DNA from: Taxillus chinensis
Taxonomy: Eukaryota > Streptophyta > Magnoliopsida > Santalales > Loranthaceae
DNA: 64,000 bases
Assembly: GCA_023512835.1 (NCBI GenBank)
Contig: CM042091.1
Span: forward strand, 38,888,107-38,952,106
Reading direction: 5' to 3'
Of this stretch, positions 8,226 through 62,222 are shown piece by piece (the stretch's first letter is position 1; every line of letters starts with the position of its first letter). Position numbers and translations under genes: made by a program. Under the pieces are notes generated by a model. It saw nothing but the letters and a program-made list of their open reading frames with translations. It made no database searches and was not told the origin of the DNA.

Positions 8226-9756
8226 TGATTAACAACTTTTTCACAGCTTCACTGATTTAGTTCAACTTTTGTCATTTAAATTGTCCTTCTAAATATTACT
8301 TTGATTCCCTAAATGTAACTACTCAGTATAGCAGCACGAAAGGGGTCGAACCCACAGGGATTAACCAAGCTTTTCCAATTTTTAATCAAATCACCTATTT
8401 ACTCTAGTCCTAGAAAATGTTTTAGCTTACTATTTTGTATTTTTCTCAAATTATTAACTCTTGTCTCTTAAATTACTAAGTAGAATGGTTTTAGTTTTAA
8501 ATTTCAGAATTAAGACATCTAGGGTCACAACTTCGCCATCCCTGCACTGTTTCTACTAATTCGAGTGCTCTTAGGTTTATTCTAAGCTACGCATGCTATT
8601 TATCAACCAAGGTTTGGCAAATGGTCATTGTCAGACCTTCTAAGCACTTACTGCATGAATGATCATCATTACAGCAGCTTCACAGCTAATAAATCACACA
8701 CATGCAAGGATAATGGTCACACCAAGCATATGCATGTCAAGAATCGTGAGTTCTGTCCCTGACTAGGACTAAGTAATCCAGAAGTGCACAATCCAGATTA
8801 TAAAATAATGATAAGATCCTTAAAACATGAAAGTTTCACATAGACAAACCCAGAATTCACCCTTCATCAATATTACAGCATAAGGGGCTACATTGCTCCC
8901 CTAGAAAATAGGAACTACTCACACATAGTGGAGATTACACTAGGATCCATAAAATACAACATTCAGACCTTGGTACAGGAGAGAAAGTGTGTTCTCAGGT
9001 GGCTTCCTTCCTCAAGGTGTGAGATAACTCCCAAATCCTAGCTCTGATCTTCAATTCCAGCAGCAATCTACACCTCCAGGTCTGCTAGGGTTTTCAGCCA
9101 TCAACCCTTTTCTCAGATGTTCAGTTCTCCTTGTTGTGGATGTGTTCTTCGTTTTATATTGGGCTGCAAGTCCAGCTAAAGATGTGCCCTAGCCGACAGC
9201 TGACATCCTATTAGCAAAACTACATCGTTTTGCTTAATGACCCAAAATCCATCTTGAAGTTACAATAATGCTCAAACCAAGCAGATTTAGACCAAGATTC
9301 TTGAGAGAAAAGTCTTTAAAATAATAAACCAAAGTGAACTATGCAAAAATACAGGTGCACTTCATATTGCACGTCATATCCTCATATGACGTGCAGCTCC
9401 AAATGAGGTGACATTGCTCCCTAAGCTTCCTGGAGTCGTGTAAAAGGCAGGACTATAATTATCTCCTTGCACGTGACAATGGTCCATGTGACGTGCACTC
9501 ATGTTTTGCCTCATCAGGCTGCTCTCTTTTGCCATAAGTTCCTTCTTTGGTAAATGAAGTGATTTGGCTGATGTCCATGAGATGAAATTGCATAAAAACT
9601 TGCCAAAACAGCTCAAAAACACATATATATAGGCCAAGCAATGTCTTCCTAAGGTGTTAGAGCAAATAATCGAGAAATATGGATAAATTAAGCTCTAGTT
9701 ATGCTCTTTAATGTCCTAAATATACACTAGAATAACGACATAAATGCACGTTATCA
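8226..9756 (-). repeat. 5' LTR of nested gypsy element
   Basis: On the minus strand the LTR begins TGATAACGTGCATTTATG and ends GTTGTTAATCA, directly before the primer-binding site. The same start is found in the gypsy LTR at 62465. The 1531 bp LTR holds clusters of CACGTGA, GACGTGC and TCACGTG near 9360-9500. It has no coding content. Its first ~210 bp (9544-9756) are included in the 12 kb duplicated unit and recur at 21550-21767. Confidence 0.85.
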
Positions 9757-11471
9757 CAGCCCAAGAACCTGACGTAGAACAGTTAGGCATTCAACGTGAA
9801 GAAAGAGAAGACCTTCCAAAGGCAAGGAGAAGGTTAAAGGACCACCCATCTAAACTAATAATAGGAGATCCTGCTGCACGGGTCAAAACAAGGGCTGCCA
9901 CACTCCATGAGAATCTATACATGTGTTTTTTATCACAAGTGGAGCCGAAAGCAATTGATGAGGCAATTCAGGATCACTATTGGATTGAGGCTATGCAAGA
10001 AGTGCTCAATCAGTTCAAGAGACAAAAAGTATGGGAGTTAGTTAACAGGCCTAGATCACAACGAGTCATTGGTGTGAAATGGATCTTTAGAAATAAACTT
10101 GATGCTGATGGTGTTGTGATCAGAAATAAGGCCAGACTAGTGGCAAAAGGTTATACAAAAGAAGAAGGAATAGACTATGATGAAACATTTGCACCAGTAG
10201 CTAGACTCGAGGCTATCTGCATGTTTTTAGCATATGCAGCATTCAAGGACTTCAAGGTTTATCAAATGGATGTCAAGAGTGCATTCTTCAATGGAGACCT
10301 CTAAGAAGAAGTCTATGTTGAACAACCTCCAGGATTTTGAGAGTCAAACCAAGAACACAAGGTGTACAAACTAAAGAATGCTCTATATGGACTAAAACAA
10401 GCTCCCAGAGCTTGGTATGAAACATTATCAGAATTCCTAATCAAAAACAAGTTCAAAAAAGGCAAGATTGACCCCACTCTATTCCTCAAAGAAGGAAAAG
10501 GATCACCATTGATTGTTCAGATTTATGTTGATGACATCATCTTCGGATCAAGGGACAAAAAGCAGTGTGAAGAATTCTCCTATCTGATGAAAAGTGAGTA
10601 TGAAATGAGTATGATGGGAGAACTTTCATTCTTTCTTGGGTTGGAGGTCAAGCAGTTGAAGGATGGAATCTTTATCAGTCAAACCAAATACACTAAGGAG
10701 TTTTTGAAGAAATTCAAGATGACTGATGTGACTCACATGAAAATGCCCATTCCTACAAACGCCAAATTGGATATGGATGAAGCAGGCAAAGAAGTGGATA
10801 TCATAGAATACAGAAGCATGATTGGATCCTTGTTGTATCTCACAGCAAGCAGAACTGATATAATGTTTGCAACATGCATCTATGCAAGATACCAAGCAAA
10901 TCCCAAGGAGTTTCATATGTCTCATGTCAAAACGATTATGCGATATCTCAAGGGAACTGAAAATTTGAGACTTTGGTACCTAAAGGAGTCTGAATTCAAA
11001 CTGAGAGGCTTTTTAGATGCAGACTTTGTTGGTTGCAGGATTGATAGGAAGAGCACAAGTGGAACATGCCAACCGCTGGCACATCGACTTATATCTTGGT
11101 TTAGCAAGAAATAGAATTCAGTTTCAACTTCAACAACTGAAGTTGAATATATTACTGTAGGAAGTTGCTGTGCTCAGTTGCTTTGGATGGCCAGTCAACT
11201 TTCAGACTATGGATTTAACCTGAAGGTTGTGCCACTATACTGTGACAACACAAGTGCCATTACAATTTCCAATAATCCTGTCATGCATCCCAAAACCAAG
11301 CACATCAAGGTCAGACATCATTTCATACATGACCATATACTAAAGAAGGACATTTCCCTTGAGTATATATCCACGGATGACCAGCTTGCCGACATCTTCA
11401 CCAAACCACTGCAAGAAGCCAGGTTCAATGAACTTCTGACAAAACTTGGCATGTTGGACTTAACTTCATAA
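9757..11471 (+). pseudogene. Copia A pol: reverse transcriptase and RNase H
   Basis: One frame carries the copia reverse transcriptase (WVFRNK-like [61 protein letters not shown], catalytic YVDDIIFGS, then MGELSFFLGLEVKQ) and RNase H (VGCRIDRKSTSGTC, VPLYCDNTSAI, IKVRHHFIHDH, LADIFTKPL). Three in-frame stops break it: TAA at 10302 (family Gln), TGA near 10338, and TAG at 11112 in SKK-x-NSVSTST, where relatives have Gln. These look like C-to-T decay of Gln codons. The product, if intact, would copy the element RNA to DNA. Confidence 0.9.
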
Positions 11472-13142
11472 TGCTTGTTCCATGTCTTGTGTTTTATTTC
11501 AACCTCTATACCTAAGCATGAACATAAATATGACACTGTTAACGATTGTTTATCTCCCCATGAGTACTAGCAATGCCTAAGTGTGATTCATACATTTCTA
11601 CAGCGGGACATTGAGAATTCACATGGATAAAACCGGCTATCTCGGAACCTGGTATAAGTCTTTTGTACAACCTGTCATGAATCTTCAAGTCTAAAGTGAA
11701 GAGAGTGCAATTTCCATTGTACTTCAATTATTTTATATTCCCATTATCTGTTGGTTTCATTCTGAGTGAATATCACTTGTGTAGTATTGCATTCATTAAC
11801 TAGCAGGAACTGTTGTATCTCATGGTACTATTGGCTTGCATGGAAAGGATCCTCAATGATTTAATGCTCTAAGGATGATTGAGACTATAGAACTTGAGAA
11901 TCATAAAAAGCCTATTACTCAAAAAGAGCTGATACCTTTCAATGGAAAAGGCAAGGTGAAAAAGGCAAAAAGAAACTATTAAAATCAATTGCCTATCTTA
12001 GGGGGAGTCCTCACTACTACCCTCAGATGTATCTCTTTTAGAGTAATAATGGAGTTCAAACTGTACGATCATCTGATATCCAAAAGAAACTGTGTTGAGC
12101 TCTGTCCAAATGAAAAGGTTCATGAATTAGCACTGAAAATGCGTGCTCTACAAAGAAAATGGGGCAACTCACACAGACAATATGAATGATCAACCTCCAA
12201 ACTCTATACATGTACTATGTTATAAGTTAGACATTGATGGAATGTGTGTTCTGATTCTCAATAGGACAATCCTGTCTCTCATCATCTAAACTGAACTGAA
12301 AATCATTGGTGGATCAGGGTTATGGTAAGATTCGGTTGACCATGAGCATACCAAACAGTGCATTCCTAGTTCCTGAATCAATCTCATATGCTAATCCGAG
12401 AGTGAGAGGGTGAGGCCTCCGCTAAGTGAGTTTTGCTAAATATGTGAGGAGATTACTGAATTCATGACTGGGTCGTTGCATTAGACTAACCATGGTTTAC
12501 TGGATGCTAGGTTAACATTGTGATCAATGTCGTGCATAAATAAGTATGTGATGATGCACTTAGTCGTTTCTAAGCTTTATGGAAATGTAAATGATTGTGC
12601 TATAGTAGTTGTACATATAAACCAGGCTTTACGGTTGAAAGAATTCAAGTTCTGAGGTTGTAATCTTAACTCCGCTTACAACACTGTTCATCATGCATTG
12701 TTTTATGTGAAATATCATATGCGTCACTTTCGTGTTGATAAGTGTTGAAAGAGTCCAGAGAAATCCACCTTTGTCGCTGAATTCGAAGTCAACCACAAAG
12801 CCTACAGCATCAAAGACTTGCTGCCTCGAAGACTGCTGCTTCGAAGCCTCGAAGCTCGGAGGGTCGTAGACTCAACCTAAACGCAGCTTTGTAGAGTTGC
12901 AGTTCCAAAGGGTCAAAGCGAAACAGATTCAGTTTCCTCGCTGCTCAAGTGTCGAAGACACATCAGCACGTCACTGTGCACTTAACATTCAAAATACACC
13001 AACATAAGGGGTAACATGTACCTATCGCTTGAATTTTCCAACGGGTGGATCCGAAAGATAAAGAGACGGGTCAGAGAAAAGGACGCAGACCTGAAGACGA
13101 ACCGACAAAATGTGTGACTTCTACGGTATGCTTCTCACCTCA
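11472..13142 (+). other. Spacer between pol and ORF2 of copia A
   Basis: About 1.7 kb with no convincing coding sequence. Polypurine tract-like TTAGGGGGAGT lies near 11998-12008, similar to tracts found just upstream of Sirevirus 3' LTRs. From about 12760 the sequence becomes rich in TCGAAG/CTCGAAG motifs like those in the LTR. Copia B has a spacer of similar length in the same place (53158-54815). Confidence 0.6.
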
Positions 13143-13326
13143 TATATAAGTCACTGATAGAGACAGAGCCCAGAGGCACGTTCTTCATTTTCACACTCGA
13201 ACCCTAACCCTAAGTGCTCTCTCTCTCTGTTTGATTCTCGTTCTCGCTCTCTATCTCTTTTATCTGACTACCTTCGAACCTTACAATATCTCTCTACGAG
13301 CGTCTCTTTCTCTCTCTATAACCTCT
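13143..13326 (+). promoter_or_regulatory. Putative internal promoter and leader of ORF2 (copia A)
   Basis: A TATATAAG box at 13143-13150 is followed about 50 bp later by two telo-box repeats (ACCCTAACCCTAAG, 13200-13213) and a CT-rich leader up to the ATG at 13327. Teloboxes and CT-rich leaders are known in promoters of highly expressed plant genes. The layout suggests ORF2 could be transcribed apart from the LTR-driven genomic RNA. This is inference from motifs. The copy at 25152-25335 is nearly identical. Confidence 0.5.
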
Positions 13327-16322
13327 ATGGAAGGACCCAGCACATCGATGGCAGAAGGACTAGGAGAAATCATCCCGGGCTTCATAGTCGACTGGGAAAC
13401 CATAGGCGATGTGAAGGTCAGCTGGCTGGGCGAGTTCAGAAATCGTCTCGATGAATCTGGAATTGCATCCGTATGCACAGGGATGCATGAAATACTGGTG
13501 GAAGACGTCTCGGAGTTTCACGAGACTTTGGTGATCTCTGGAGATGACCTGGTGGGAACAGTACAAGGAGTGGAGATTCGAGTCTCTGCCGAAACACCAA
13601 AATGCACTTCCACTCCCGAAAGGTAACTTTGAACCTCTTCCCAGTCTCTCTAGAGAAGAGTGTAAGTCTTTTCTGGGGTATTCCAACCCTAGAAAGCAAG
13701 GCCGGGGAACCTTGAAAATTGGGTTCTCCGATCAGGCACTGGCGACTCTCATAGTCACCGGACAGTGCCTGATGTGCAAGAAGACTGCTCGTGACTCTGC
13801 AAGCCATGAGCAGATGAAGATCATGTGTAGCGTACTGCAAGGAAGAAGAATAGACTGGGGAACTCAACTACACAATATGATTAAGAGCAAGAAGGGGCAC
13901 TTTGGACTGGTTCTCACCAAAATCCTAAGATTCCTTCACCCTGAGGTATTCAATCACCGACCCACGGCGAAACTACCGACCAAGTTTATTTTCAAGAGCA
14001 TATACGAGGATGGCCGGCTGGAGATCAAGCCTATGAAATGGCCCAGGTCGAGTATGAGAAGTCTCGCTGAGGACACTACAAGTTCTGTTAGAGCCCCAGC
14101 TCCTAGACCAAGTCGAGCAGCACCTGGTCCTCAGACTTCTCGAGCATCCTCTGCGTCTGCTGCAACGGTCCATATAGATGAAGTGGTGGAGAACATTGTC
14201 AGAACTTGTCTCCCCACTGATTGTTGATAGGCCCAGTGATACTGCAGAGATAAGAGAGCCTGCAGCTAGAGGGAAGTCACCTGTACTAGAAACCCCAGAA
14301 GTTAGGGGTACATTAACTGTTCTGCTAAGTTCTCTTGGAGAGTCTGAGCTAGAGGACTTTTATGTTGAGTATGCCAAAGCTCACATGACCCCCACTGAGT
14401 TGAGGAAGGCATGGCTTTGGCAAGCAGATGGTAGATAGAGACCATCTAATCAGTTGGTTGGTAGAGCAGGGTCTTGTGAGGAGAGACCCTGTAGAAGCTG
14501 TCTCGATGGTTGCCCCATCTCCTATCATGGGTGAAACTCCTGACATATTAACTCCCCATGATGCCGAGATGCTAAGAATGCTGAGGAAGAGGAGGAGGCA
14601 CTTACTGTTGAAGCCGAAAGTGACTCTGATGCAGAGGAAGTACCACATGCTTCTGAGCATGTAGAGGTGCCTGAGATGGCCACTCCACTTGAACCGGAGA
14701 CTCATCAAGTGGTCAGTCAGAGGAGTGAGAACTTAACCTCCCATGTTCCATCAGCCATTCCATTAGCTTCCACCTCTCACTTGCGCTCCTTGACTGCTAA
14801 GGAAGTGGACCGTATTGCTGACAAGGTATTGGAAAAACTGACCACATCTGGACTGTTAAATTTCACACCTACCATTCAAGCAGTCGAGGGACGATTTTCT
14901 ACAGTGGAGGAGGGAATGGAGAAGCTCATAAATGAAGTTGAACTTTCTGACTTTGAGTTAGAAAGGGTCAAGACTAAACTGGAATCCCTCATCAGAGTAA
15001 GCACTGAATGGTTTAAACGCCTCAAGAACCATAGTGAAGACATAAAGGAGGCATACAAGAATCAGCATGAGGGATTTCTTAAAACTATGGGTCCTATTTT
15101 TGAAGCTTGCAGCCGACTAGATCGTGGAGAGATCACTCTCACCATGAAGCCACCTCAAAAGACCACTAAGGATAGACCTGAGCCGGTTCCCATTGATGAA
15201 CCTACAACCTTAACCAGTCCTGCTTCCAGTCCTCCGGCACCTCATACTACTTCACCTCAACCTTCTCCTCCTCCACAACTGCGACAGGAAGCTACCTATG
15301 CCCGTGGGCGAAAGCGTGCACACAGAGCCACTGTCCTCGCTAATTCTGATGATGATGATGTACCCATTGGAACGCGCATGAAGAAGCATCCTACTGCTCC
15401 AGGACAAACCTCATCCTCCACTCAACTTGGTCCCTCAATGACCCATCCAAGTACGGCTGAGTATACCATGCCCGCTTCCCCTACTAAACCAGCCGCTACT
15501 ACCACCGCTACACCGATTGTACCACCGTGCACTGTGACTACAGGAGCCAGTCCATCTGAACTTGCCGCTTTCAATAGCTATGTTGTTGGGGACACCACCA
15601 CGTGGACTTGTGGCTACGAAGCATTCTTCACTGGACCTGACCTGTGTCGATTACTACACAATGGTGAATAGATGGATAATCTTGAGATGACACAGTTCAT
15701 CTTTGCACAAAAGTCATATCTGGAGAAGCTTCCTCTCCATATCCGCCGAGATACACGTGTGGAGCTCTGTTTGCCTATTATGCAGGCTCAGCTCATTGAT
15801 GATGCCTCAATGATCGAGTTTATCCAAGGTCGCAGATATGAGAACTCCTTCCATCCATGGAATGAGGTCGACCATGTGCTCATCCCATACTTGTCAACAT
15901 CCCCACACTGGTTTCTTCTCGATATTGATTTCAAGAACAAGAAGATCGTCATCTTTGACTCCAAGCCTACTACTCTACTACTCCATCGGCGGGAACAACT
16001 TCGTGAATTCAATCGCACCTTTACACGTGTCATGCAGGGATATTCGCATGGGTGTGGTGGCTATCATCTTTCAAAACCGATGGAAATTACTCGAATCAAG
16101 CAAGGCGTTCCTGCTCAGGATGATGCTCATAGCTGTGGTTTCTATGTCTGCCACTATATTCGCATCCTGACCACCAACGGCTTCCCTGCCCTCATGCCTG
16201 AATTTGATCGTGTGAGCAGTCGAGCCACCTCACTACATCTGACCACTGCTCAACTCCTGCGTGAGCAAGCAGCTGTTTTTCTGTTTACACAAAGTGTAAA
16301 ATATTCTGACTTTAAACCGTAA
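13327..16322 (+). pseudogene. ORF2 of copia A: N-terminal domain, linker, coiled coil, Ulp1-like C48 peptidase
   Basis: ATG at 13327 starts a leaky but recognisable gene. The N-terminal domain (13327-14070) has PGFIVDW, LVEDVSEFHETL, GTVQGVEIRV, LPLPKGNFE and IDWGTQLHNM...FGLVLTKILRFL. It resembles domains annotated as 'putative plant transposon protein' (PF20167 is my best guess, by eye only). A Pro/Ser/Ala-rich linker, a coiled-coil-like stretch (14800-15080), and a basic RGRKRAHR followed by an acidic DDDD run come next. The C-terminus (15650-16322) is a Ulp1-like cysteine peptidase. Frameshifts occur at about 13600, 14200 and 14569, and a TAG at 15669. Copy 2 has an extra G at the equivalent of 14569 that keeps the linker open. 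Confidence 0.75.
15650..16322 (+). pseudogene. Ulp1-like (C48) cysteine peptidase domain of copia A ORF2
   Basis: The segment counted from the Met at 15672 has His79 in PHWFLLDIDF (codon 15906), Asp96 in KKIVIFDS (15957), Gln149 and Cys155 in AQDDAHSCGF (16134). His-to-Asp spacing (17) and Gln-x5-Cys match the Ulp1/SENP active site. The in-frame TAG at 15669 falls in LLHNGE-x-MDNLEM, where the family usually has Trp (GEWLND), so TGG to TAG is likely. Ulp1 enzymes cleave SUMO or similar proteins. The substrate here is unknown. No catalytic residue is lost in this copy, so only the TAG and upstream frameshifts disable it. Confidence 0.85.
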
Positions 16323-16742
16323 CTGTTTTGTACTCTATTTACTTGTACACTGCTCTTCCTTTTTCCTCTTTTTGTGTTTTCTATGTACTTACTTTATCTC
16401 AGTTACTTTTTGTGTATGTCTTTGCTCTGCTGCTTGTTGTTCTGTGATTTATTGCATTACTCCCATGTGATTTGTGTTCTGCTGCTTGTTCCTCACCCCA
16501 GAAAGGGGGAGTATATCTCAAGGGGAGCAAGGCCGTAGGGGGAGTTATCTTTGACAGGTGGCAGCTAACGCAGCTTCATGCCTACGGGGGAGAGGAGTGT
16601 GCATTTTCGTAATTTTGATCTCCTCTAAATTTTTCATATGCAAAGATATTTTCTGTTAACTTAAAACTGCCCATCAAACTCGTAGTCTCAGACTTCATGT
16701 TTTCCACCCATTGTCAGCTTACATTAAATAGGAGGAGATTAT
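16323..16742 (+). promoter_or_regulatory. 3' untranslated region with multiple polypurine tracts
   Basis: Five purine-rich tracts lie between ORF2 and the LTR: AAAGGGGGAG near 16502, AAGGGGAGC near 16520, AGGGGGAG near 16537, CGGGGGAGAGGAG near 16585, and AGGAGGAGATTAT just before the LTR. Multiple polypurine tracts before the 3' LTR are a known Sirevirus hallmark. The last tract is the likely primer for plus-strand DNA synthesis. Confidence 0.7.
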
Positions 16743-18643
16743 TGGAAATATAGGATTTGATGAAGCTGCCAATATATAGTCTAAGTCTGGAGACTCGAAG
16801 ATCTGAAGGTCATAGGGTCGAAGAGTCGTAGTTTGTAGAAGTAAAACTGTCATAGGACATATTGGCGAGAGGCTCGTAGACTCGTAGGGTCTAGAGACTC
16901 GAAGCATATTTTGACAGAACACAATGCGACTCGTAGATCCCGAGACAAAGGTCATAGAGCCGCAATACAAAAAATAGAGCGTTACTATAAGCAACGAATT
17001 AATTCAGAGACTCGTAGGGTTGAAGAATTCCAAAAGAACAGTAACTAAACTTAAATAACTCGAAGACTCGAAGCCTGTAAAACTGTAGAGTCCCTAGAGC
17101 GCTCATGTCACTTAAAAGAACTTGAAGTACCGCTAGACTCGTAGACTCAAGGGTCATTGAGTCGCAACCTTATAACACGGTTAAGAAAACAGGACTCGCA
17201 GACTCATAGGTCGAAGGTCGAAGAGTCAAAGCCAAAGAGACTGACCAACTTAAATGAAACTGTAACTTGAGAGTCATAGAGTCGTAGACTCAAGGGATAC
17301 AGGTATGTTAGAGAACTTGTTAGACATATCACAGACTCGAAGATCATAAAGGCAGAGAGTTACAGCTGAAGGGTTGTAGCCTTAAAGTCGAAAACTCGTA
17401 GAATATGGAAACTCAGTGCATACGCAACTATGAAAGGCTAAGGAAGAAATGTAAAGTCTAAGACTTGCAGAGTCGAAGAGTTTTAAGGTCGAAGACTCGC
17501 AGAGTCGAAGAGCCTCTTAGTCAAGTAAAATAAACTGAGAAACCCGAGAGTCATAGATCCGCAAAGGTAGGGTTGTAGACTCGCAGCTGTAACAACGGGT
17601 AGATTAGGCGCACTTCAAAAAAGTCACTCTAAGAGCCATTAGGATAGTCGCAGACTCGTAGAGTCATAGACTCGCAGACTTTTAATTAATAGAGTGACAC
17701 AACACACTTAATCAAACTCGAACTCTAGCCTCGGAGACTCGAAGATATGTGAGTCGTAAACTCGCAGATACCAACACTGTAAAGCCTTAAGTAAACTTCC
17801 ACAACCTCAATGGGCTCTAACTGAAACCTTCGAGTCATCAAACCTACGAGGCACCCAACTTCAAGACATACTTAAAACACTGAGCATACGCACTTAATGA
17901 TATCTTCAGCTAGGGTTTATACAGTAAGCTTGCGCCGTCTTGGGTAGTTGGAGTGTAATTAATGCTGTATTAATTGCGATCAACCACTTTCCATGGATGA
18001 ACGGCCAAGATCGACTACGCAAGTATGGGCATGCATCTATGCAGCATGTGCAACAGATATGCAAATCAAAGCAAATCAACCCATCCCCTGACATCCCGCA
18101 TATCCAGTGGTAGGAAGTCAGTCTGTCTGATGGATAACATGGCACACAACAATCTAAACTTAAAATATATATCTCTCTCACATGAAACGATAAAGGTGTC
18201 AATCACTTTATCTGAAAGAGCGGAACACACAGAATACAAGAAATACTCACAAAAGAGAAAGACTCAAGAGAGAATTCTTCTATGCAGTGCGCCATGTTGA
18301 CCTAGAACAAGAACAAATCTGTTCATTAATCAAAAACTCTTGTTCATCAAAGATCCAACACAATCACCGATTCTCATCTCTGTGTTGTTTCCCACAATCC
18401 AAACTATCAAAGCTCATTCCTGTTACATCTGAGATCTGTTTAGTAAAGAGCATTTACTCCTATATCAGATTTGTCTGATAGTTCATTACACCTCACATTA
18501 TCACTCAAATTACTACTGTCATCTTCTCCATAAACACGTCCATTCTAGTTATCTGTAAGAGTAGTATAAACCAGCTAACAGTCTAGCTTCTACGAAGAAG
18601 GAAGTGTATTCATCCCCCCTCTAGACTCACTTTGGGACCTACA
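16743..18643 (+). repeat. 3' LTR of copia A
   Basis: The repeat starts TGGAAATATAGG right after a polypurine tract and ends CTTTGGGACCTACA. The end resembles other copia LTR ends in this window (CTCTAGGCTCCAAGGGACC). Its first 1.1 kb is packed with GACTCGTAG/GACTCGAAG/GACTCGCAG motifs. The flanking sequence at 18644 belongs to a different copia element (C), so A was inserted in C. No matching 5' LTR is in the window. Confidence 0.7.
16790..17830. repeat. GACTCG(A/T/C)AG motif array in copia A LTR
   Basis: Dozens of dispersed copies of a 9-mer GACTCGWAG (also GACTCGCAG, GAGTCGTAG and GTCGAAG) are spread over 1 kb with irregular spacing. Many occur in pairs. The same motif recurs in the LTR of copia C (19740-20190), in the spacer near 12830-12880, and in the gypsy-like region 44520-44870. 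The copy in the second unit is at 28793-29840. Confidence 0.75.
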
Positions 18644-21427: not shown

Positions 21428-21473
<46 letters not shown>

Positions 21474-21549: not shown

Positions 21550-21767
21550 TCTTTGGTAAATGAAGTGATTTGGCCGATGTCCATGAGATGAAATTGCATA
21601 AAAACTTGCCAAAACAACTCAAAAACACATATATATATAGGCCAAGCAATGTCTTCCTAAGGTGTTAGAGCAAATAATCGAGAAATATGGATAAATTAAG
21701 CTCTAGTTATGCTCTTTAATGTCCTAAATATACACTAGAATAACGACATAAATGCACGTTATCACAG

Positions 21768-25335: not shown

Positions 25336-28326
25336 ATGGAAGGACCCAGCACATCGATGGCAGAAGGACTAGGAGAAATCATCCCGGGCTTCATAGTCGA
25401 TCGGGAAACCATAAGCGATGTGAAGGTCACTGGTCGGGCGAGTTCGTAAATCGTCTCGATGAACCGAATTGCATCCGTATGCACAGGGATGCATGAAATA
25501 CTGGTGGAAGACGTCTCGGAGTTTCACGAGACTTTGGTGATCTCTCGGAGATGACCTGGTGGGAACAAGACAAGGAGTGGAGATTCGAGTCTCTCGCCGA
25601 AACACCAAAATGCACTTCCACTCCCGAAAGGTAACTTTGAACCTCTTCCCGTCTCTCTAGAGAAGAGTGTAAGTCTTTTTCGGGGTATTCCAACCCTAGA
25701 AACCAAGGCCGGGGAACCTTGAAAATTGGGTTCTCCGATCAGGCACCGGCGACTCTCATAGTCACCGGACAAAGGCTCGATGTGCAAGAAGACCGCTCAT
25801 GACTCGCAAGCCATGAGCAGATGAAGATCATGTGTAGCGATCGCAAGGAAGAAGAATAGACCCGGGAACTCAACTACACAATATGATTAAGAGCAAGAAG
25901 GGGCACTTTGGACCTGGTTCTCACCAAAATCCTAAGATTCCTTCACCCCCGAGGTATTCAATCACCGACCCACGGCGAAACTACCGACCAAGTTTATTTT
26001 CAAGAGCATATACGAGGATGGCCGGCTGGAGATCAAGCCTATGAAATGGCCCAGGTCGAGTATGAGAAGTCTCGACGAGGACACTACAAGTTCGTTAGAG
26101 CCCCAGCTCCTAGACCAAGTCGAGCAAGACCTGGTCCTCGGACTTCTCGAGCATCCTCTCCTGTCCGCGCAACGGTCCATATAGATGAAGTGGTGGAGGA
26201 CATTGTCGAACTTGTCTCCCCACCGATTGTTGATAGGCCCAGTGATACTGCAGAGATAAGAGAGCCTGCGACTAGAGGGAAGTCACCTGTACTAGAAACC
26301 CCGAAGTTAGGGGTACATTAACCGTTTTGCTAAGTTCTCTTGGAGAGTCCGAGCTAGAGGACTTTTATGTTGAGTATGCCAAAGCTCACATGACCCCCAC
26401 CGAGTTGAGGAAGGCATGGCTTTGGCAAGCGGATGGTAGATAGAGACCATCTAATCGGTTGGTTGGTAGAGCAGGGTCTTGTGAGGAGAGACCCGTGAAG
26501 GCTGTCTCGATGGTTGCCCCATCTCCTATCATGGGTGAAACTCCTGACATATTAACTCCCCATGATGCCGAGATGGCTAAGAATGCTGAGGAAGAGGAGG
26601 AGGCACTTACTGTTGAAGCCGAAAGTGACTCTGATGCAGAGGAAGTACCACATGCTTCTGAGCATGTAGAGGTGCCTGAGATGGCCACTCCACTTGAACC
26701 GGAGACTCATCAAGTGGTCAGTCAGAGGAGTGAGAACTTAACCTCCCATGTTCCATCAGCCATTCCATTAGCTTCCACCTCTCACTTGCGCTCCTTGACT
26801 GCTAAGGAAGTGGACCGTATTGCTGACAAGGTATTGGAAAAACTGACCACATCTGGACTGTTAAATTTCACACCTACCATTCAAGCAGTCGAGGGACGAT
26901 TTTCTACAGTGGAGGAGGGAATGGAGAAGCTCATAAATGAAGTTGAACTTTCTGACTTTGAGTTAGAAAGGGTCAAGACTAAACTGGAATCCCTCATCAG
27001 AGTAAGCACTGAATGGTTTAAACGCCTCAAGAACCATAGTGAAGACATAAAGGAGGCATACAAGAATCAGCATGAGGGATTTTTTAAAACTATGGGTCCT
27101 ATTTTTGAAGCTTGCAGCCAACTAGATCGTGGAGAGATCACTCTCACCATGAAGCCACCTCAAAAGACCACTAAGGATAGACCTGAGCCGGTTCCCATTG
27201 ATGAACCTACAACCTTAACCAGTCCTGCTTCCAGTCCTCCGGCACCTCATACTACTTCACCTCAACCTTCTCCTCCTCCACAACTGCGACAGGAAGCTAC
27301 CTATGCCCGTGGGCGAAAGCGTGCACACAGAGCCACTGTCCTCGCTAATTCTGATGATGATGATGTGCCCATTGGAACGCGCATGAAGAAGCATCCTACT
27401 ACTCCAGGACAAACCTCATCCTCCACTCAACTTGGTCCCTCAATGACCCATCCAAGTACGGCTGAGTATACCATGCCCGCTTCCCCTACTAAACCAGCCG
27501 CTACTACCACCGCTACACCGATTGTACCACCGTGCACTGTGACTACAGGAGCCAGTCCATCTGAACTTGCCGCTTTCAATAGCTATGTTGTTGGGGACAC
27601 CACCACATGGACTTGTGGCTACGAAGCATTCTTCATCGGACCTGACCTGTGTCGATTACTACACAATGGTGAATAGATGGATAATCTTGAGATGACACAG
27701 TTCATCTTTGCACAAAAGTTATATCTGGAGAAGCTTCCTCTCCATATCCGCCGAGATACACGTGTGGAGCTCTGTTTACCTATTATGCAGGCTCAGCTCA
27801 TTGATGATGCCTCAATGATCGAGTTTATCCAAGGTCGCAGATATGAGAACTCCTTCCGTCCATGGAATGAGGTCGACCATGTGCTCATCCCATACTTGTC
27901 AACATCCCACACTGGTTTCTTCTCGATATTGATTTCAAGAACCAGAAGATCGTCATCTTTGACTCCAAGCCTACTACTCTACTACTCCATCGGCGGGAAC
28001 AACTTCGTGAATTCAATCGCACCTTTACACGTGTCATGCAGGGATATTCGCATGGGTGTGGTGGCTATCATCTTTCAAAACCGATGGAAATTACTCGAAT
28101 CAAGCAAGGCGTTCTCGCTCAGGATGATGCTCATAGCCGTGGTTTCTATGTCCGCCACTATATTCGCATCCCGACCACCAACGGCTTCCCTGCCCTCATG
28201 CCTGGATTTGATCGTGTGAGCGGTCGAGCCACCTCACTACATCCGACCACCGCTCAACTCCTACGTGAGCAAGCGGCTGTTTTTTTGTTTTACACAAAGT
28301 GTAAAATATTCGACTTTAAACCGTAA
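25336..28326 (+). pseudogene. ORF2 of copia A, second copy
   Basis: The same gene as at 13327-16322. The linker and coiled-coil part is one open frame here (26459-27676), better preserved than in copy 1. The N-terminal domain (25370-26490) and the peptidase domain (after 27900) lie in patches with many CAG/CTG changes. A C is missing near 27908, just before the catalytic His codon. The codon for the catalytic Cys reads CGT (28138-28140) instead of TGT, a CTG-to-CCG change. Both defects may be sequencing errors. The TAG at 27674 is shared with copy 1. Confidence 0.75.
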
Positions 28327-33433: not shown

Positions 33434-33436
<3 letters not shown>

Positions 33437-33505: not shown

Positions 33506-33510
<5 letters not shown>

Positions 33511-48953: not shown

Positions 48954-50292
48954 TGATGGTCCCTTGGAGCCTAAAGGGGGGGGGGTGAATAGGCTCTTAT
49001 CGAAACTCTTTTACACTCTTAAGGCACGGCACTAATCTAGTTAAGTGATAGAATCACTACGGAAGATAACCAGATAGTGGAAGTATTTTGTTTTATTATC
49101 AAGAGATAAGTACAACAAAATAGAAGCAACTCTCTTACACGTTGTTTTTCAAAAGGATTCACACACTAGCCTAGATTTTATCCTTCAGCTCTTGTGCATA
49201 CAAAGGGTTAATTCCGGCTCATACACTGTATCTCTCTTCCTCTTACAAATATACAAATATGAATATTTATACAAACATTCCTAAGAGACAACCTTGGGAC
49301 TTGTAGTTCCGGAATGCGTTCAGCACTAACTATTCCTCGGTAATCTCTCTGCCTTGACTGTTGCGGTTTGTGGAGCTCAAGATCATGGGTTTGAAGAGTA
49401 TAAGTGCATTTGTGAGTTCCCAAATGCAATTGAGGTTGTGTCCACATATCCGGATGATCTACGTGTAAGATTCTTCAGGTTCTCAATAAATTTGTCTTAC
49501 ATCGGGACGCCACGAGCTGATAACATTAAATGCGGTGAGTTGAAGTAGTATCTTCTTGGTCCGGTGTAATTCTCCTTACTCCGTTGCTAATGAAGCTCGG
49601 AACCTTACTCCGTGTCAATGATTGCTTACTCCGTATCTGTTTAGTACCTGGAATCCTTAGTCCGTGCTAGCGCTTCCTTACTCCGCATGTAAGTTCCTTA
49701 CTCCGTATGTAAATTCCTTACTCCGTATGTAAGTTCCTTACTCCGGGCGAGTCTTAAAAGGTTGGATGACTTATTCCGTATCAGTGCTTCCTTACTCCAC
49801 ATGTAAGTTCCTTACTCCGTATGTAAATTCCTTACTCCGTATGTAAGTTCCTTACTCCGTATGTAAATTCCTTACTCCGTATGTAAGTTCCTTACTCCGG
49901 GCGAGTCTAAGGGATCGGAGTGCTTACTCCGTACTAGCGCTTCCTTACTCCATATGAGTAAGTTGTCCGGATTCCTTACTTCGCATCTAGTTTGTTTACT
50001 CCTTGCGAATAAAGGCTCAGATCCTTATTCCGCATCAATACCTTTAAGTTCTTTGTCCGTACGAATGTTCCTTATTCCGTATGTATTGATGACTTGGTTA
50101 TTTACCAAGTGTTTGACGACACTCACTCTTGTCCGGATCAGGATTATGTATCCTGTCCTTAGCTTTGCTCTCACGAGTGTATCTGCGGATTAATATCATA
50201 TCTTCTGCAACGATCAAATAAACACAAGAGATCTCAGATCAAATTACATAAGGCTTTATCAGCATTATCCAAATTCTGGGTTTGATCCAACA
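48954..50292 (-). repeat. 3' LTR of copia B
   Basis: On the minus strand it starts TGTTGGATCAAACCC at 50292 and ends GGGACCATCA at 48954 (1339 bp). The polypurine tract ATTGGAGGAGAT (50304-50293) lies directly upstream. The 5' LTR copy begins at 62223. An array of the unit TTCCTTACTCCGTATGTAAG occupies 49670-49900. Confidence 0.9.
49670..49900. repeat. 20 bp tandem array in copia B LTR
   Basis: About nine or ten copies of TTCCTTACTCCGTATGTAAG (alternating final G or A) occur in two blocks separated by CTCCGGGCGAGTCTTAAAAG-type sequence. In the solo LTRs at 4114 and 45437 the same motif is present but scattered, so the array expanded in this copy. Confidence 0.8.
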
Positions 50293-50555
50293 ATCTCCTC
50301 CAATTATGGATATGCCCAAACCCTTTGGAATCTGATCTGGTAAGCAGTGCAAAAAGATAACATATAGAATACGCATCACAACCAAATTTATTTATCAGCA
50401 ACTAAGTACAATTCAGCCTTAATACAAGATTTTCACTAAGGTACATAAGGCTTACTATACTTGAAGATCATAGTTGCTGCCTTCTCTCTAAGCTCCATTG
50501 TCTGCTTCATCATATAAGTAGTGTGTTGGCTCCACAATTTATCCACAATCAAAAA

Positions 50556-50930
50556 TTACTTGGTGAAGTAACAGATAAAAGCCCCGCAGCTATCTCCATC
50601 CAGCTGTTGTGGCACTTGCTTCTTGCCCCGGAATGTCGCCTTCAGCTTCTCAGTTGGACCCAAGGGAGTGATGCCCAACTCTTCATATAAACCAGCTTTC
50701 TTCACAGCTTCAGTCAGCCTGAGACAAAGTGGCTCCCATTGATTCTTTCTTACAAAATGCTCCACTATCTGATGAGAATCAATGAGAATCATTTGCTTGG
50801 ACTGAATCATGAAGACAGCCATCATGAAGTGTGGCGACATGATCCGGTACGGAATGAGAATGGTTGAGAGAGTTTTCCATGGCTTGCTATCCTCAGCAGT
50901 TCCGTCGATGAAGGACTGAATTAGATCCAC
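50556..50930 (-). pseudogene. Ulp1-like (C48) cysteine peptidase domain of copia B ORF2
   Basis: From the Met at 50930, His34 lies in SPHFMMAVFM, Asp51 in MILIDSH, Gln109 in KQVPQQLDG and Cys115 in GDSCGAFICYF. The His-to-Asp spacing of 17 and Gln-x5-Cys equal those of copia A and of Ulp1/SENP enzymes. All catalytic positions are kept. The frame ends with TAA at 50556. Upstream in-frame TAG codons at 50952 and 51084 separate it from the linker. The substrate is unknown. Confidence 0.85.
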
Positions 50931-53157
50931 ACTGGGAAGATAGCCTTCATTCTAACACGACAGAACTTCAAACAAGTGCCCATCCTTGTATAAAGATGGA
51001 AATAGCCTCATCTCCATTTTAGCAGCCCTCGAGAAGTTATCAATGTCTTCTATAGTAAAGAGTCCTTTCTCCGAACAAAGAGTCTAAATGTTGTCCGGGG
51101 AGAAAGGGTACATTTCAGAAAGGCATCTTCTCTCAGCAGAAGACGCTGCATAGGACTTCATTGCTTTGCAAACACTTCCATCCACATCAGAAGGGTCAAA
51201 CGCCGCATATGATGGGAGGAAGGTGTCGGCTGCGGATAAGGAGGATGGAGGAGGAGCTGGAGCTGCAGTAGAGGGGCCTGGTTGAGAGAAGCGACTTCGT
51301 TTGGGAATTTGAACTCCCTGAAGCACTGAAGCGGCAGGCCGCTTCTCAGTCCGAGTAGATGGTTGTGGTGCAGAAGGAGCAGAGGGGGCAGACGGATCAA
51401 ATGACACTTTCTCCCCTGGTTTGGCAGATCGCCGGGAAGCAACGGGAGGACGAGCCATCGTGTGCGCCAGGTCCGCGAAGGAGGTAGACAGTGAAAGAAC
51501 GGACGAGGCGACTAGATCCATTTTCTGCTCCATAGAGGTGGAGGAGTCAGTGAGAGCGGAGAGGAGTTGGGCGCCGAGTGCATCAACCTTGGCGGCGATG
51601 GCGGAAATTTGGGTACTCTGAGCCTGGGCGTGGCGGTCCAGCTGGGCGGAGAGCACAGCGTCGGAGTGGACCGTGCCAAAAGAGGCACGCCCAAGGATCA
51701 ACTCCGGAGCTTTGGAGGACTCCCCCGCATGAACAGGAGCAGGGGTGCGCTGGGTAGAGGAGTCCGTAGGAGTATCAGCAGCAGCAGCAGCGAAGGGGCA
51801 TCCGGAGCAGCTGACCCGCTTTGACCAGAGAGGTCAACCACGGGAATGGCAGCAGCAGGAGAAGAGGGGCCAGCCATAGCGGGAGAAGGACCCCGGGCGG
51901 AATGAACAGGGCTGGAGGGAGTAGTGAACGCCACATCTGGAATGGAGGCCGGCGTAAGAAAGCCGTGATCCAAGTTCCAGATGACCATTGTCTCCGGGGA
52001 TTGGGTATGTCGTGTGTAAAACACCCGGAGATCGTTGTTAGGAACGGAGGTGGTGTGGGCAAGGCTAAAATGGAGCCATAGGTCCGTTAAGGTGTCGGCG
52101 GAGAGATGGTCAAGATAATCTCGGGGTTGAGGTAGGGGAGGCAACGGGGCTTCTGGAGAAGAGGCCGGGACATTAGCAGTGGCGGCCGCAACAACGGTAT
52201 CAACCGCGGCAGCAACAGTGGAGGAGGGAGTAGGGACATCCGTAGCAGATGGAGCTGAGGAAACAGCTTTAGGGGCACTGCGCTGAGATGGCCCAGGAAC
52301 CTCGGATGGGTCGGCACGAACGCTGTGCTGGGAGGCCCGAGAATGAGAAGGTGCTGCTACGGACCGAATCCGGGAGGATCGGGGTGCAAACTGACGTGGG
52401 GGCTTGGCTGTCGGAGGGGTCACCAACAGAACTGCCTTGTTGTTCCGAGGCAGGGAGAATGCCGAGAGCTGTTGATGGTCGGTGGTCTATCATGTTCCCA
52501 TCCGGTGTAAGATAACGAAGGTAATAAGCCTGGAGGAAATGGAACAGTATCATATCGGGTGAAATGGTCCGGATTAAGATGCCGGAAGACAATGCTGAGG
52601 ATGTGCCCAAAGGAATGGTTCTTGGGACCATTCTATAGCAACCGAAACAAGAATATCCCCCAATCCATCGGAAGTCCTTCAAAAACGCCGTACATGGCCA
52701 GGAGAAGGTCGTACGGAACGGAGTCGAGGGCGGATGTGCGAGCTAGTAAGCATCGACTCAAGATGGTCGTCATACATCGATAGTGACCTTGGAAGGATTT
52801 CACCTTGTATTCCTTGCCTTTTTGTGTGCAACCCATAGAAGCCGCCATTGGATCGGCATCTGGGCGCTATGGTTCACCAAGAGGTAGGTGGAGAGCAGCT
52901 CGGAGAACGGTTGGAGTGATGATGATGGATTCACCGCGGACATAGGAGAGTATAGAATCGGTGGTGCAGCGAATCCGTTGGTAATACTCAATGATGTCTT
53001 CGATAAGAAGATCGACGGGATTGGAGATCAGGTTGAGTATATGCGAGGCTTCAAGGAGCGGGCAAAGCTGGAAAAACCAATCCGGAGGATTAGAGACAGC
53101 ACTCCAATCAACCAGATGGCCAGGATTAACGCCGGAAAGAGAGATTCTGGGTGCCAT
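50556..53157 (-). pseudogene. ORF2 of copia B: N-terminal domain, linker, Ulp1-like C48 peptidase
   Basis: ATG at 53157 begins an N-terminal domain with NPGHLVDWS, LLIEDIIEYYQRI, SYVRGESIIITPTVL, ALHLPLGEP and, later, GLPMDWGIFLFRLL...FGHILSIVFRHL. These align by eye with the copia A ORF2 pieces. A Ser/Pro/Ala-rich linker (52430-51700) and a heptad-like region follow. The C-terminal peptidase is at 50930-50556. Stops in the main frames are all TAG: 52867, 52633, 51084 and 50952. A frameshift lies near 52430-52500. The gene is not intact as read, but its order of domains matches copia A. Confidence 0.75.
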
Positions 53158-60662: not shown

Positions 60663-62162
60663 TCATTTCACAATAACTTTTAGGCCCGTTAGGTTGGTAT
60701 TTAGCAAATGATTTTCTGCTCTTAGATCATGATACCAAGCCTCTTTTCCTCTAAAGTCAGCTATGTCCTTTTCAAGTCTAGTGATAGTAAATTCAAGGCA
60801 TTTATTCTGACTTTCCACATCTTTGTACATTTGAGTAATTATTTGTCTCTCATTCTTTTCATGATCACGTTCACTAATAAGAGATTCTAATTGACTCATG
60901 AGCTCAGAGATAGAAGGTACCTCAGTGTTTGCCATGAGGTAGACGTTCGGCTTAGGAGTTGGCTCATCATCTGAGGATTCCTCCTCTTCTTCCGAGCCAC
61001 TAATGTACTTTGTCACGAACGCCTTCCTCTTGTTCTTGCTGTTATCTGAGGTGGAGCGGCGAGGAGTTACCTTATCACTTTTCTCGGCCACTTTTGATTT
61101 GGATCTGCATTCCTTGGCCCAATGACCGGGTTTCCCACAGTTATAGCATTCCTGGGAACTGGACTCCAGTCTCTCCTTCCTTTGGAAAGATGATGACGAG
61201 CGTCTCCTGAATCCTTTTCTGCTTTTCCATAGGAATCGCTCAAAGGATTTGACGAGAAGAGCTATCTCCTCCTCCTCGTCAGAGTCAGAATTCTCGGACA
61301 CGTCCGTATCATCATTCCTCAGTATGTTTAAACATTCTGTAGCTTTGAGAGCTACCCCCTTTTCTTTCCGAGCTATTTTCTCATCTCGGTCAGAGTACTT
61401 AAACCTGACTTTGTGAGTCTGCAGCTCTCCATATAGTTCTTCAAGGGGAACATACTGCCAGTTTTTGTCTGATTGCATCTGGAGATGTTTAGAGTAGTAT
61501 CGATCCGGCAAGGAGCGAAAGAACTTGTCATTGATCTGAGATTGAGAATAATGCTCATTGACAGTCTTCAGCTCAAGAATGAGCTTGCCGAATCTCCGAT
61601 AGATACTTTCGAGTGATTCACCTGGTTTATGATTGAAACTCTCAAAGTTCTGCCTGAGAGTACATATCACAGTTTGCATTTGGGACTGACTCCCCTCATA
61701 GAGGATTGTCAGTTTATCCCAAACGGCTTTGGCTGTCGTGCAACCCTGGACTTCCGTGAAAGCCTCGGAATCCAAGGATGATGTAACATAAGCCAGAGCC
61801 TTTTCACTAGCGCACTGCCAGGCTCTTTCATCGTTGGTAAGTTCAGCATCCGTCTTTGGCCTCCTAACTCCATGTTCTCCGATAGTCATTGGAATTGGAA
61901 TCTCCTGATGAAGACATGGCCACATGAGATGATCATGGCATACCATAAACATCTTCATGCGAGCTTTCCACTGGGAGAAAAGCTCAGGTGTGAATTTGGG
62001 CGGTTTCGTCAATGTAAAACCAGAACTCCGTGGTTGAGGAGCGACAGCAGCAGCAGGTTGTGGTGGATCGACGTTTTCACTGCTGCTTCGATTTGGGATG
62101 GGCTCTTGTGCACCTCCGGAGTTAAGGCAAGTGTTAAATAGCATACTACTTTCTTCGGCCAT
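60663..62162 (-). CDS. Copia B Gag, 499 codons open
   Basis: An uninterrupted frame from ATG at 62162. Residues 48-260 form the copia gag domain (UBN2-type; SGFTLTKPPKFTPELFSQWK, AVWDKLTILYEGSQSQM, LILELKTVNEHYS). A CCHC zinc knuckle CYNCGKPGHWAKEC is at 339-352. Lys/Ser-rich sequence and an acidic stretch follow, then a predicted coiled coil (about 415-490; ISELMSQLESLISERDHEKN). A TGA at 60663 ends it in VIVK-x-LENELEQE, where the frame goes on. CGA to TGA is likely, so the natural protein may have been longer. It would bind element RNA and build the particle. Confidence 0.9.
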   Translation of the reverse strand: MAEESSMLFNTCLNSGGAQEPIPNRSSSENVDPPQPAAAVAPQPRSSGFTLTKPPKFTPELFSQWKARMKMFMVCHDHLMWPCLHQEIPIPMTIGEHGVRRPKTDAELTNDERAWQCASEKALAYVTSSLDSEAFTEVQGCTTAKAVWDKLTILYEGSQSQMQTVICTLRQNFESFNHKPGESLESIYRRFGKLILELKTVNEHYSQSQINDKFFRSLPDRYYSKHLQMQSDKNWQYVPLEELYGELQTHKVRFKYSDRDEKIARKEKGVALKATECLNILRNDDTDVSENSDSDEEEEIALLVKSFERFLWKSRKGFRRRSSSSFQRKERLESSSQECYNCGKPGHWAKECRSKSKVAEKSDKVTPRRSTSDNSKNKRKAFVTKYISGSEEEEESSDDEPTPKPNVYLMANTEVPSISELMSQLESLISERDHEKNERQIITQMYKDVESQNKCLEFTITRLEKDIADFRGKEAWYHDLRAENHLLNTNLTGLKVIVK

Positions 62163-62208
62163 TGCTTAGAGTAAAAGAGTGGGATCTCTACTTTTGAATA
62201 AATAGACT

Positions 62209-62220
62209 GCTCTGATACCA
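62209..62220 (-). other. Copia B primer-binding site
   Basis: The minus strand reads TGGTATCAGAGC two bases after the 5' LTR. This complements the 3' end of initiator methionine tRNA, the usual primer of plant copia elements. Confidence 0.9.
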
Positions 62221-62222
62221 CT

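What the first reader, a model, noticed from the sequence alone, without database searches (positions are those of the whole stretch)
13327..16322. Copia A carries a second gene ending in a Ulp1-like cysteine peptidase
Between pol and the 3' LTR lies a gene of about 3 kb. Its C-terminal domain has His (15906), Asp (15957), Gln and Cys (16134) at the exact spacing of Ulp1/SENP SUMO proteases (His to Asp 17 residues, Gln-x5-Cys). Sireviruses are known to have an optional env-like ORF in this place. Ulp1 genes are known in plant DNA transposons such as some Mutator-like elements. I do not know of a described copia lineage with a Ulp1 gene in the env position. If general, these elements may alter SUMO or ubiquitin-like tags during replication or silencing.
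Basis: partly seen in the sequence, partly recalled or inferred. Interest (0 to 1): 0.88.

Follow-up and report, generated by a model that had tools for sequence, protein, structure and literature searches.

The report
Sirevirus retrotransposons carrying a Ulp1 protease
A plant jumping gene of the copia (Sirevirus) type carries, in the slot usually called "envelope-like", a gene whose last domain is a SUMO-protease-type enzyme kept by natural selection across copies in this genome, which gives a testable function to a gene class whose role has been unknown.

Summary
Observation confirmed. The 216-residue frame at 15672-16319 is a Peptidase_C48 (PF02902, E 2.4e-15) with His/Asp/Gln/Cys exactly where stated. 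It belongs to the copia element: it lies between RNase H and a Sirevirus-type polypurine tract and 3' LTR. A second, diverged copia in the window (minus strand; RT/RH 63-74% identical) has the same gene in the same slot at only 23-29% identity, with the same catalytic spacing. Of 20 genome copies sampled by C48 score, 17 have the LTR about 0.4 kb after C48 and 12 have copia pol upstream. In a C48-blind sample of 20, all hold C48 sequence (15 near complete); median dN/dS is 0.22, RT being 0.27. The N-terminal domain is probably a divergent PF20167. In family A the gene has its own TATAA motif and LTR-type repeat boxes upstream. The window copy itself is dead (frameshifts, a private in-frame stop). 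So part of the fast-evolving Sirevirus "ENV-like" gene class is a Ulp1-type peptidase fusion, not an envelope. Role is inferred: most likely SUMO removal that relieves host repression. Shown for one genome only; my searches found no printed description, but a key supplementary table could not be read.

The parts
9744..11471 (+). Element A: copia RT (two frames, 9744-10304 and 10341-11114) and RNase H (11115-11471); 5' part lost or interrupted by a gypsy LTR ending about 9756
   Evidence: PF07727 E 4e-28 and 1.9e-36; RH 73.7% identical to element B RH, itself no Pfam match
12760..12970 (+). Cluster of repeated boxes (CGAAG/CGTAG half-sites) in the linker, the same boxes as in the LTR
   Evidence: 7 half-sites in 211 bp against at most 2 in any equal window of pol or gene; mean 7.44 per 200 bp at -600..-400 of the gene in 16 copies
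13143..13149 (+). TATATAA upstream of the gene, likely internal promoter (inferred)
   Evidence: TATAA core invariant in 16 aligned copies
13327..14227 (+). N-terminal domain of the extra gene (pieces 13327-13623 and 13535-14224, different frames), probably a divergent PF20167
   Evidence: Homologous to B (E 4e-10 and 2e-6) and to L020, which itself reaches PF20167 E 6.2e-12, 46.2 bits against 45; no direct Pfam match for A
14562..15668 (+). Middle region: acidic, Pro-rich and basic linker, 369 aa
   Evidence: ORF; about 38-52% identical over the main stretches in most other A-family loci, 81% in L014
15669..15671 (+). Private in-frame stop between middle region and C48 (shared only with the tandem copy)
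   Evidence: Sense in 14 of 14 other copies that could be tested
15672..16319 (+). C-terminal Ulp1-type peptidase (C48): His 15906, Asp 15957, Gln 16116, Cys 16134
   Evidence: PF02902 E 2.4e-15; residues; 8-sequence profile against PDB: SENP1 E 6.5e-11
16504..16737 (+). Multiple polypurine tracts: exact AGGGGGAG at 16504 and 16537, one-mismatch at 16520 and 16585, terminal AGGAGGAG at 16730-16737 followed by AT
   Evidence: exact AGGGGGAG-AT/TG at this junction in 12 of 20 sampled loci
16740..18641 (+). 3' LTR of element A; C-rich integrase-signal-like end, ...GGGACCTACA
   Evidence: LTR start found after C48 in 17 of 20 sampled loci
25336..28326 (+). Tandem copy of the gene (unit 2, 21550-33583); C48 piece frameshifted and catalytic Cys replaced by Arg
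62209..62465 (-). Element B: 3' end of the 5' LTR (62223-62465, 95.5% to its 3' LTR), cut by a gypsy LTR; PBS TGGTATCAGAGC at 62209-62220
60663..62165 (-). Element B gag (500 aa, copia gag plus CCHC)
   Evidence: PF14223 E 5.3e-23, PF00098
54816..57602 (-). Element B integrase core, RT and RNase H
   Evidence: PF00665 E 4.1e-10; PF25597, PF07727; RH by homology to A
50438..53157 (-). Element B extra gene (decayed): N-domain 53157-52870, 52866-52639; C48 50951-50559 with His, Asp, Gln, Cys at the same spacing
48956..50292 (-). Element B 3' LTR, preceded by GGAGGAG-AT/TG

Best explanation
SHOWN: The feature is the extra gene (eORF-3'F, 'ENV-like') of a Sirevirus-type copia retrotransposon. It encodes a protein with an N-terminal domain that is probably a divergent PF20167, a variable Pro-rich/basic middle and a C-terminal Ulp1-type (C48) cysteine peptidase. 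It is a resident gene of the element, found in the same slot in diverged copia lineages, and in family A its peptidase is kept by purifying selection about as strongly as RT. The window copies are decayed. INFERRED: the gene is expressed from its own promoter (TATAA motif, LTR-type repeat boxes upstream in family A), and the peptidase removes SUMO or a related ubiquitin-like tag from host repression factors, or from Gag/integrase, so that the element escapes repression or completes its cycle. Probabilities: resident, selected C48 gene 0.95; active Ubl peptidase in intact copies 0.8; SUMO as main tag 0.6; relief of host repression rather than maturation of the element's own proteins 0.4.
For: C48: PF02902 2.4e-15; profile of 8 sequences from four lineages (A, B, L003/L006, L020) against PDB: SENP1 6.5e-11, Ulp1 1.8e-7, with His, Asp, Gln, Cys invariant in all 8. 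Residence: element B in the same window, gag to 3' LTR, with the gene in the same slot; 12 of 20 sampled loci with pol upstream on the same strand and 17 of 20 with the LTR after C48; fixed spacing. A third lineage: L006/L031 with gag-INT-RT, an N-domain piece and C48 on one strand; the Sirevirus twelvemer follows C48 exactly in L003 and with one mismatch in L004, L006 and L008, against none in 146,048 bp of upstream control. Selection: C48-blind sample, 20 of 20 hold C48 sequence, 15 usable, median dN/dS 0.22, pN<pS in 7 of 7 disjoint pairs; N and U1 0.33-0.34, RT 0.27, RH 0.21. Promoter. Precedents: the SUMO pathway with Ulp1 controls yeast Ty1 transcription (PMC8585004, passages); Ulp1-carrying KIU genes of Vandal MULEs act in hypomethylation of related elements (PMC13317346, passages).
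Against: No enzymatic, expression or substrate evidence. The fold model is poor (mean pLDDT 39.6); its Foldseek matches are not significant (best Ulp1, E 0.043) and unrelated ribosome-assembly proteins score nearly as well. Element B's C48 alone is under the Pfam cut-off (15.1 against 20.7 bits). In the blind sample 5 of 20 copies have only 48-109 residues of C48, 4 of the 15 usable ones have lost one or more of the four key residues, and many have stops: normal for old copies but not proof of need. Of the seven non-A C48 loci looked at (L002-L006, L008, L020), three (L002, L005, L020) have no Sirevirus junction after C48 and L005 and L020 no copia pol in the 7-13 kb seen upstream; L003 has the N-domain but no copia pol in the 5.6 kb before it. 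Protein searches of 5.8 billion sequences found no relative of the C48 piece although that set holds plant copia RTs; the tool's length and exact-word limits weaken this, but generality across plants is not shown. Repeat boxes upstream of the gene were clear only in family A. In yeast both loss of SUMO conjugation and ulp1 mutation derepress Ty1, so the direction of effect is not simple.
Confidence: 0.72

Rival explanations
1. The peptidase serves the element itself, not host silencing: it trims or de-modifies Gag, integrase or its own precursor during particle assembly or nuclear entry, as a second maturation protease beside the aspartic protease.
For: The wider fold class includes processing proteases as well as deSUMOylases (general knowledge, no call); the gene is carried and selected like pol.
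Against: The gene looks like a separate transcription unit with its own TATAA motif, so its product need not be packaged; copia elements normally carry an aspartic protease (general knowledge).
Confidence: 0.25
2. A host ULP gene captured by the element and carried as a passenger without function.
For: Plant elements do capture host genes (PMC13317346 passages; PMC7264820). Many copies are broken.
Against: dN/dS 0.22 in a C48-blind sample; diverged lineages with the same domain order and triad; a domain related to PF20167 'putative plant transposon protein' sits at the N-terminus.
Confidence: 0.04
3. The gene is a separate DNA transposon (a Ulp1-bearing Mutator-like element, as Kaonashi/KIU) nested in the copia element.
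For: Ulp1 genes are known in MULEs of Arabidopsis, melon, rice, grapevine (PMC13317346, passages).
Against: Same slot and spacing in many copies and in B; no transposase of that kind in the gene pieces scanned with Pfam.
Confidence: 0.02
4. It is a true envelope or movement protein, as the name ENV-like suggests.
For: Position after pol; genes there have been called ENV-like (PMC3414828, passages).
Against: No 19-residue stretch with a mean hydropathy over 1.6 in any of nine scanned pieces of genes A and B (highest 1.47, inside B's C48 core); a peptidase triad under selection.
Confidence: 0.03

Closest known systems
Sirevirus (SIRE/Maximus) copia elements with ENV-like / eORF-3'F gene (SIRE1, Endovir, ToRTL1)
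   Same: Gene in sense between pol and 3' LTR; multiple AGGGGGAG tracts, AT/TG junction, PBS junction (B) and C-rich LTR end; very fast-evolving gene; in family A also repeat boxes before the gene and in the LTR.
   Different: The gene ends in a Ulp1-type peptidase; the passages I read give only transmembrane and coiled-coil features and no proven function (PMC3414828; PMC6317226). Sequence relation to SIRE1 env not tested.
Kaonashi / KIU genes of non-TIR MULEs (Vandal, melon and rice MULEs)
   Same: A plant transposon gene with a Ulp1 domain, long conserved; KIU is a VANC-type gene tied to hypomethylation of related elements (PMC13317346, passages).
   Different: DNA transposons with another N-terminal part (VANC type). 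Here an LTR retrotransposon with a PF20167-like N-domain.
Ginger1 DNA transposons and nematode NeSL/Utopia non-LTR elements with Ulp1
   Same: Mobile elements with a Ulp1-like domain in their own proteins (PMC2836005, PMC4640811, passages).
   Different: Domain fused to the transposase or to the RT protein, not a separate env-position gene; not plant LTR elements.
Yeast Ulp1 and human SENP1/SENP2
   Same: Catalytic core and triad by sequence profile.
   Different: Cellular genes; 12-20% identity to yeast Ulp1 in the (poor) model alignments; rest of the protein differs.

Membership tests
Peptidase C48 (Ulp1/SENP) | Profile match over the curated cut-off | tested here: met
   A 57.4 bits against 20.7; L003, L006, L020 49-53 bits. 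B alone 15.1, below the cut-off.
Peptidase C48 (Ulp1/SENP) | His-Asp-Cys triad plus Gln of the oxyanion hole | tested here: met
   for A; invariant in 8 of 8 aligned.
Peptidase C48 (Ulp1/SENP) | Ulp1 fold | tested here: inconclusive
Peptidase C48 (Ulp1/SENP) | Cleaves SUMO or another Ubl | not testable with these tools
   Needs an enzyme assay.
Sirevirus | Multiple AGGGGGAG tracts, terminal one joined to AT/TG at the 3' LTR | tested here: met
   A: two exact and two one-mismatch copies plus a decayed terminal one; exact twelvemer at the junction in 12 of 20 sampled loci. In B the terminal tract has mismatches and the upstream copies lie before the gene.
Sirevirus | 5' LTR/PBS junction CA-A[T/G]TGG-TATCAGAGC | tested here: met
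   Element B 62209-62224 (motif from PMC2829016). Not testable for A (5' end missing).
Sirevirus | Repeat boxes in LTR and just 5' of the extra gene | tested here: met
   Family A only. Not clear in B, L003, L006.
Sirevirus | RT/RH/INT phylogeny within the SIRE clade | not tested
   No reference SIRE pol sequences were at hand.
Sirevirus ENV-like gene | Transmembrane segment | tested here: not met
   Highest 19-residue Kyte-Doolittle mean 1.47 in nine pieces; simple scan on decayed pieces only.
Sirevirus ENV-like gene | Sequence homology to the SIRE1 env gene | not tested
PF20167 (Transposase_32) N-domain | Profile match over the cut-off | tested here: inconclusive
   L020 46.2 bits against 45 (met), L030 19.6, L031 12.9; A and B no direct match, only through homology to L020.
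KIU/VANC MULE gene | VANC-type N-domain and MULE ends | tested here: inconclusive
   No such Pfam match in the gene pieces scanned; MULE ends were not searched directly.

The most novel reading that the evidence does not exclude
The 'ENV-like' gene of Sireviruses is, at its root, not an envelope but an anti-silencing factor: a PF20167-type DNA- or chromatin-targeting domain fused to a deSUMOylase that acts at the element's own repeat boxes in the LTR and before the gene, removing SUMO from host repressors. That would make it an LTR-retrotransposon counterpart, evolved separately, of the VANC/KIU system of Vandal MULEs, and explain both the fast evolution of the gene and the family-specific repeat boxes.
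Probability: 0.2. Interest if true: 0.92.

Novelty: new variant of a known kind. Interest (0 to 1): 0.76.

Why it matters
Neumann et al. [quoted passage not shown] Here two such genes that their BLAST threshold of 1e-10 would barely or not join share an N-domain and a C48 triad, and in one family the peptidase is under purifying selection. That turns 'does it have a function?' into a concrete test: a Ubl peptidase, with known residues to mutate, in a very abundant plant retrotransposon genus. It also adds plant LTR retrotransposons to the mobile elements (MULEs, Ginger, NeSL/Utopia) that hold a Ulp1 domain.

Tried and rejected
Nested MULE or host-gene insertion: rejected on fixed position in many copies and in element B. 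Stop-codon suppression between middle region and C48 (known for SIRE1 by a reference title in PMC3414828): considered because the stop is shared by both tandem copies; rejected, since 14 of 14 other testable copies have a sense codon there. Envelope reading: no transmembrane stretch. Repeat boxes before the gene as a general rule: clear for family A, not for B, L003 or L006 (in B a stretch inside pol scores higher). AlphaFold of C48 with three window sequences: poor model, not used as evidence. Protein database searches with C48: nothing (one search shows the set holds plant copia). Viral contigs: nothing. NCBIfam: nothing. First-pass dN/dS came from copies chosen by C48 score and is biased; repeated on parts of C48 outside the scored stretch (0.18 and 0.28) and on a C48-blind sample (0.22). 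Rows dropped: 5 of 20 copies with under 130 residues. Three of those 20 (L034, L040, L043) lie at places also in the C48-scored list. One search left out L002-L009, L016, L020, L025 and the tandem copy as divergent, fragmentary or duplicate. The 16 copies were those whose N-domain match begins at residue 1, so the ATG being present in all 16 is partly by choice. Sampling of C48 hits was to be 40 of 150; only 20 of 150 were obtained as 10-kb stretches (rows 9-85, every fourth, row 57 replaced by row 58), so rows 86-150 are not represented.
Full report
WHAT THE WINDOW HOLDS. Upstream, from an ATG at 13327, lie an N-terminal part in two frames (13327-13623, 13535-14224) and a middle part (14562-15668). 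Copia RT and RNase H end at 11471. After C48 come polypurine tracts (exact AGGGGGAG at 16504 and 16537) and a terminal AGGAGGAG-AT before an LTR that starts at 16740 and ends at 18641. The whole block 9544-21549 is tandemly repeated at 21550-33583 with 97.9% identity; the second C48 is frameshifted and has lost its Cys.

A SECOND, INDEPENDENT CASE IN THE SAME WINDOW. On the minus strand element B runs from a 5' LTR end and PBS (62209-62220) through gag (PF14223), integrase (PF00665), RT and RNase H to a 3' LTR at 50292-48956. Between RNase H and the 3' LTR it has the same gene: N-domain 23% identical over 77 residues (E 4e-10), a next piece 29% over 42 (2e-6), and C48 26% over 120 (3e-12), with the same His-to-Asp and Gln-to-Cys spacing. 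The middle parts show no match. blastn at 1e-3 finds no nucleotide match between the two genes, while the main RT and RH stretches are 63-74% identical in protein. So the gene is shared by the two elements and evolves much faster than pol. B's C48 alone falls below the Pfam cut-off; the claim for B rests on the pairwise match and the residues.

THE GENE ACROSS THE GENOME. The genome (521 Mb) gave 4308 first-look C48 candidates, of which 150 were scored, all over the cut-off. Fourteen of the 150 lie in open frames of at least 500 residues without a stop; one of these (L001) matches A's C48 only at 7.7e-4. I took 20 of the 150 as 10-kb stretches. Twelve of 20 have copia RT and/or RH upstream on the same strand, and 17 of 20 have the A-type LTR start after C48. 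RNase H to gene ATG is 1838-1885 bp in 10 of 11 measurable sampled loci (the other has an insertion) and C48 to LTR 343-438 bp in 16 of 16. The exact Sirevirus twelvemer stands at that junction in 12 of 20. The 8 loci without pol in reach were not resolved one by one; some are interrupted or truncated, and L020 is of another family.

OTHER LINEAGES. L003/L004 and L006/L008 form one lineage (C48 72% identical between L003 and L006), 27-34% identical to A and B. L031, next to L006, has gag-INT-RT pieces and an N-domain piece on the same strand; L030, next to L003, has the N-domain but no copia pol in the 5.6 kb before it. The Sirevirus twelvemer follows C48 exactly in L003 and with one mismatch in L004, L006, L008, against none in 146,048 bp of upstream control; L002, L005 and L020 lack it. 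L020 has N-domain and C48 but no copia pol in about 13 kb upstream, which holds gypsy-like frames; L005 shows no copia match in 7 kb upstream.

SELECTION. In family A the window's in-frame stop is private: sense in 14 of 14 other testable copies. Pairwise dN/dS medians were: RT 0.27, RH 0.21, N 0.33, U1 0.34, U2 0.37, C48 core 0.13, C48 outside the Pfam-scored stretch 0.18 and 0.28. Because those copies were picked by C48 score, I drew a second sample by the non-coding stretch after the gene plus the LTR start (1349 first-look candidates, 40 scored, 90-100% identity). Rows 3-22 of those 40 were read: 20 of 20 hold C48 sequence, 15 with at least 130 residues and 5 with 48-109. The 15 give median dN/dS 0.22 (IQR 0.16-0.30), pN below pS in 7 of 7 disjoint pairs. 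All four key residues are kept in 11 of the 15; the other 4 have lost one or two. Between the two tandem copies in the window, counts are small and constraint is weak or absent (pN/pS 0.82 in the middle part, 0.56 in part of RT). For B and the other lineages no dN/dS was computed.

DOMAINS AND EXPRESSION. A profile of eight C48 sequences from four lineages matches SENP1 at 6.5e-11 and yeast Ulp1 at 1.8e-7 among solved structures, with His, Asp, Gln, Cys, the neighbouring Ser-Cys-Gly and a Trp invariant. The N-domain of L020 reaches PF20167 'putative plant transposon protein' at 6.2e-12, just over its cut-off; L030 and L031 match the same model weakly and in order; A and B relate to it through L020. 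No transmembrane stretch was seen. Before the gene, a TATAA core is invariant in 16 aligned copies (13 genome copies of family A, the two window copies and L020); the AACCCTAA-type leader is seen in the family A copies, not in L020. The LTR's repeat boxes cluster at -600 to -400 (7.44 per 200 bp; at most 2.44 in other bins from -2000 to +3000). This matches what Bousios et al. describe for ENV-containing Sireviruses (PMC2829016, passages). It was not clear in B, L003 and L006.

HOW IT MOST LIKELY WORKS. Residence, architecture and, for family A, selection are shown. That intact copies are active Ubl peptidases is likely from the triad. That the target is SUMO on host repressors is inference. 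Precedents from the text passages I read: the SUMO pathway and Ulp1 tethering control Ty1, a copia-type element of yeast (PMC8585004), and Ulp1-carrying KIU genes belong to the VANC hypomethylation system of Vandal MULEs (PMC13317346). The main rival is a role in maturation of the element's own proteins.

WHAT IS KNOWN. In ten full-text searches of a library that lacks most subscription papers I saw no paper that describes a C48 domain in a copia element; I judged by listings, and opened passages of PMC13317346, PMC11963269, PMC2829016, PMC2836005, PMC3414828, PMC4640811, PMC5240378, PMC8585004, PMC9768921, PMC6317226, PMC3599292 and the first two of three parts of PMC7264820. PMC6317226 reports CDD matches of extra ORFs in a supplementary table that could not be read here, so a C48 entry there is possible. 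Nothing outside this one genome was shown to carry the gene.

Noticed in passing
9544-21549 and 21550-33583: A 12-kb tandem duplication (97.9%) whose breakpoint lies inside a gypsy LTR; it copied parts of two Sireviruses together. Divergence is uneven: linker 0.59%, gene 2.25%.
   Followed up: partly
18642-20530: A third Sirevirus fragment (RT end, three exact and one one-mismatch polypurine tracts, LTR start about 19598) with no gene between pol and LTR: an element of the gene-less kind, or a deleted one, in the same window.
   Followed up: partly
45437-46669 and 4114-5449: Solo LTRs of the element B family; the first is flanked by the 5-bp repeat CAAAC on both sides.
   Followed up: partly
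34152-34998 and 41741-42994 (minus): Parts of a further copia element (gag about 72% identical in DNA to B, and a PR/INT-region piece) without RT and linker.
   Followed up: no
62456-62966: A gypsy LTR inserted in element B's 5' LTR; a relative (9264-9765) abuts element A's pol.
   Followed up: no
46821-48209: A minisatellite-like tandem array of diverged units.
   Followed up: no
L001 (G000:C191): Best C48 hit of the genome, in a 1092-residue open frame at 51% GC against 32-40% for the eight other stretches measured; may be a foreign contig or a host gene.
   Followed up: partly
L003 / L004 (G000:C2, 18.7 kb apart, opposite strands): Two C48 genes with the same score in inverted orientation, in open frames of 453 and 427 residues; possibly a large inverted duplication.
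   Followed up: no
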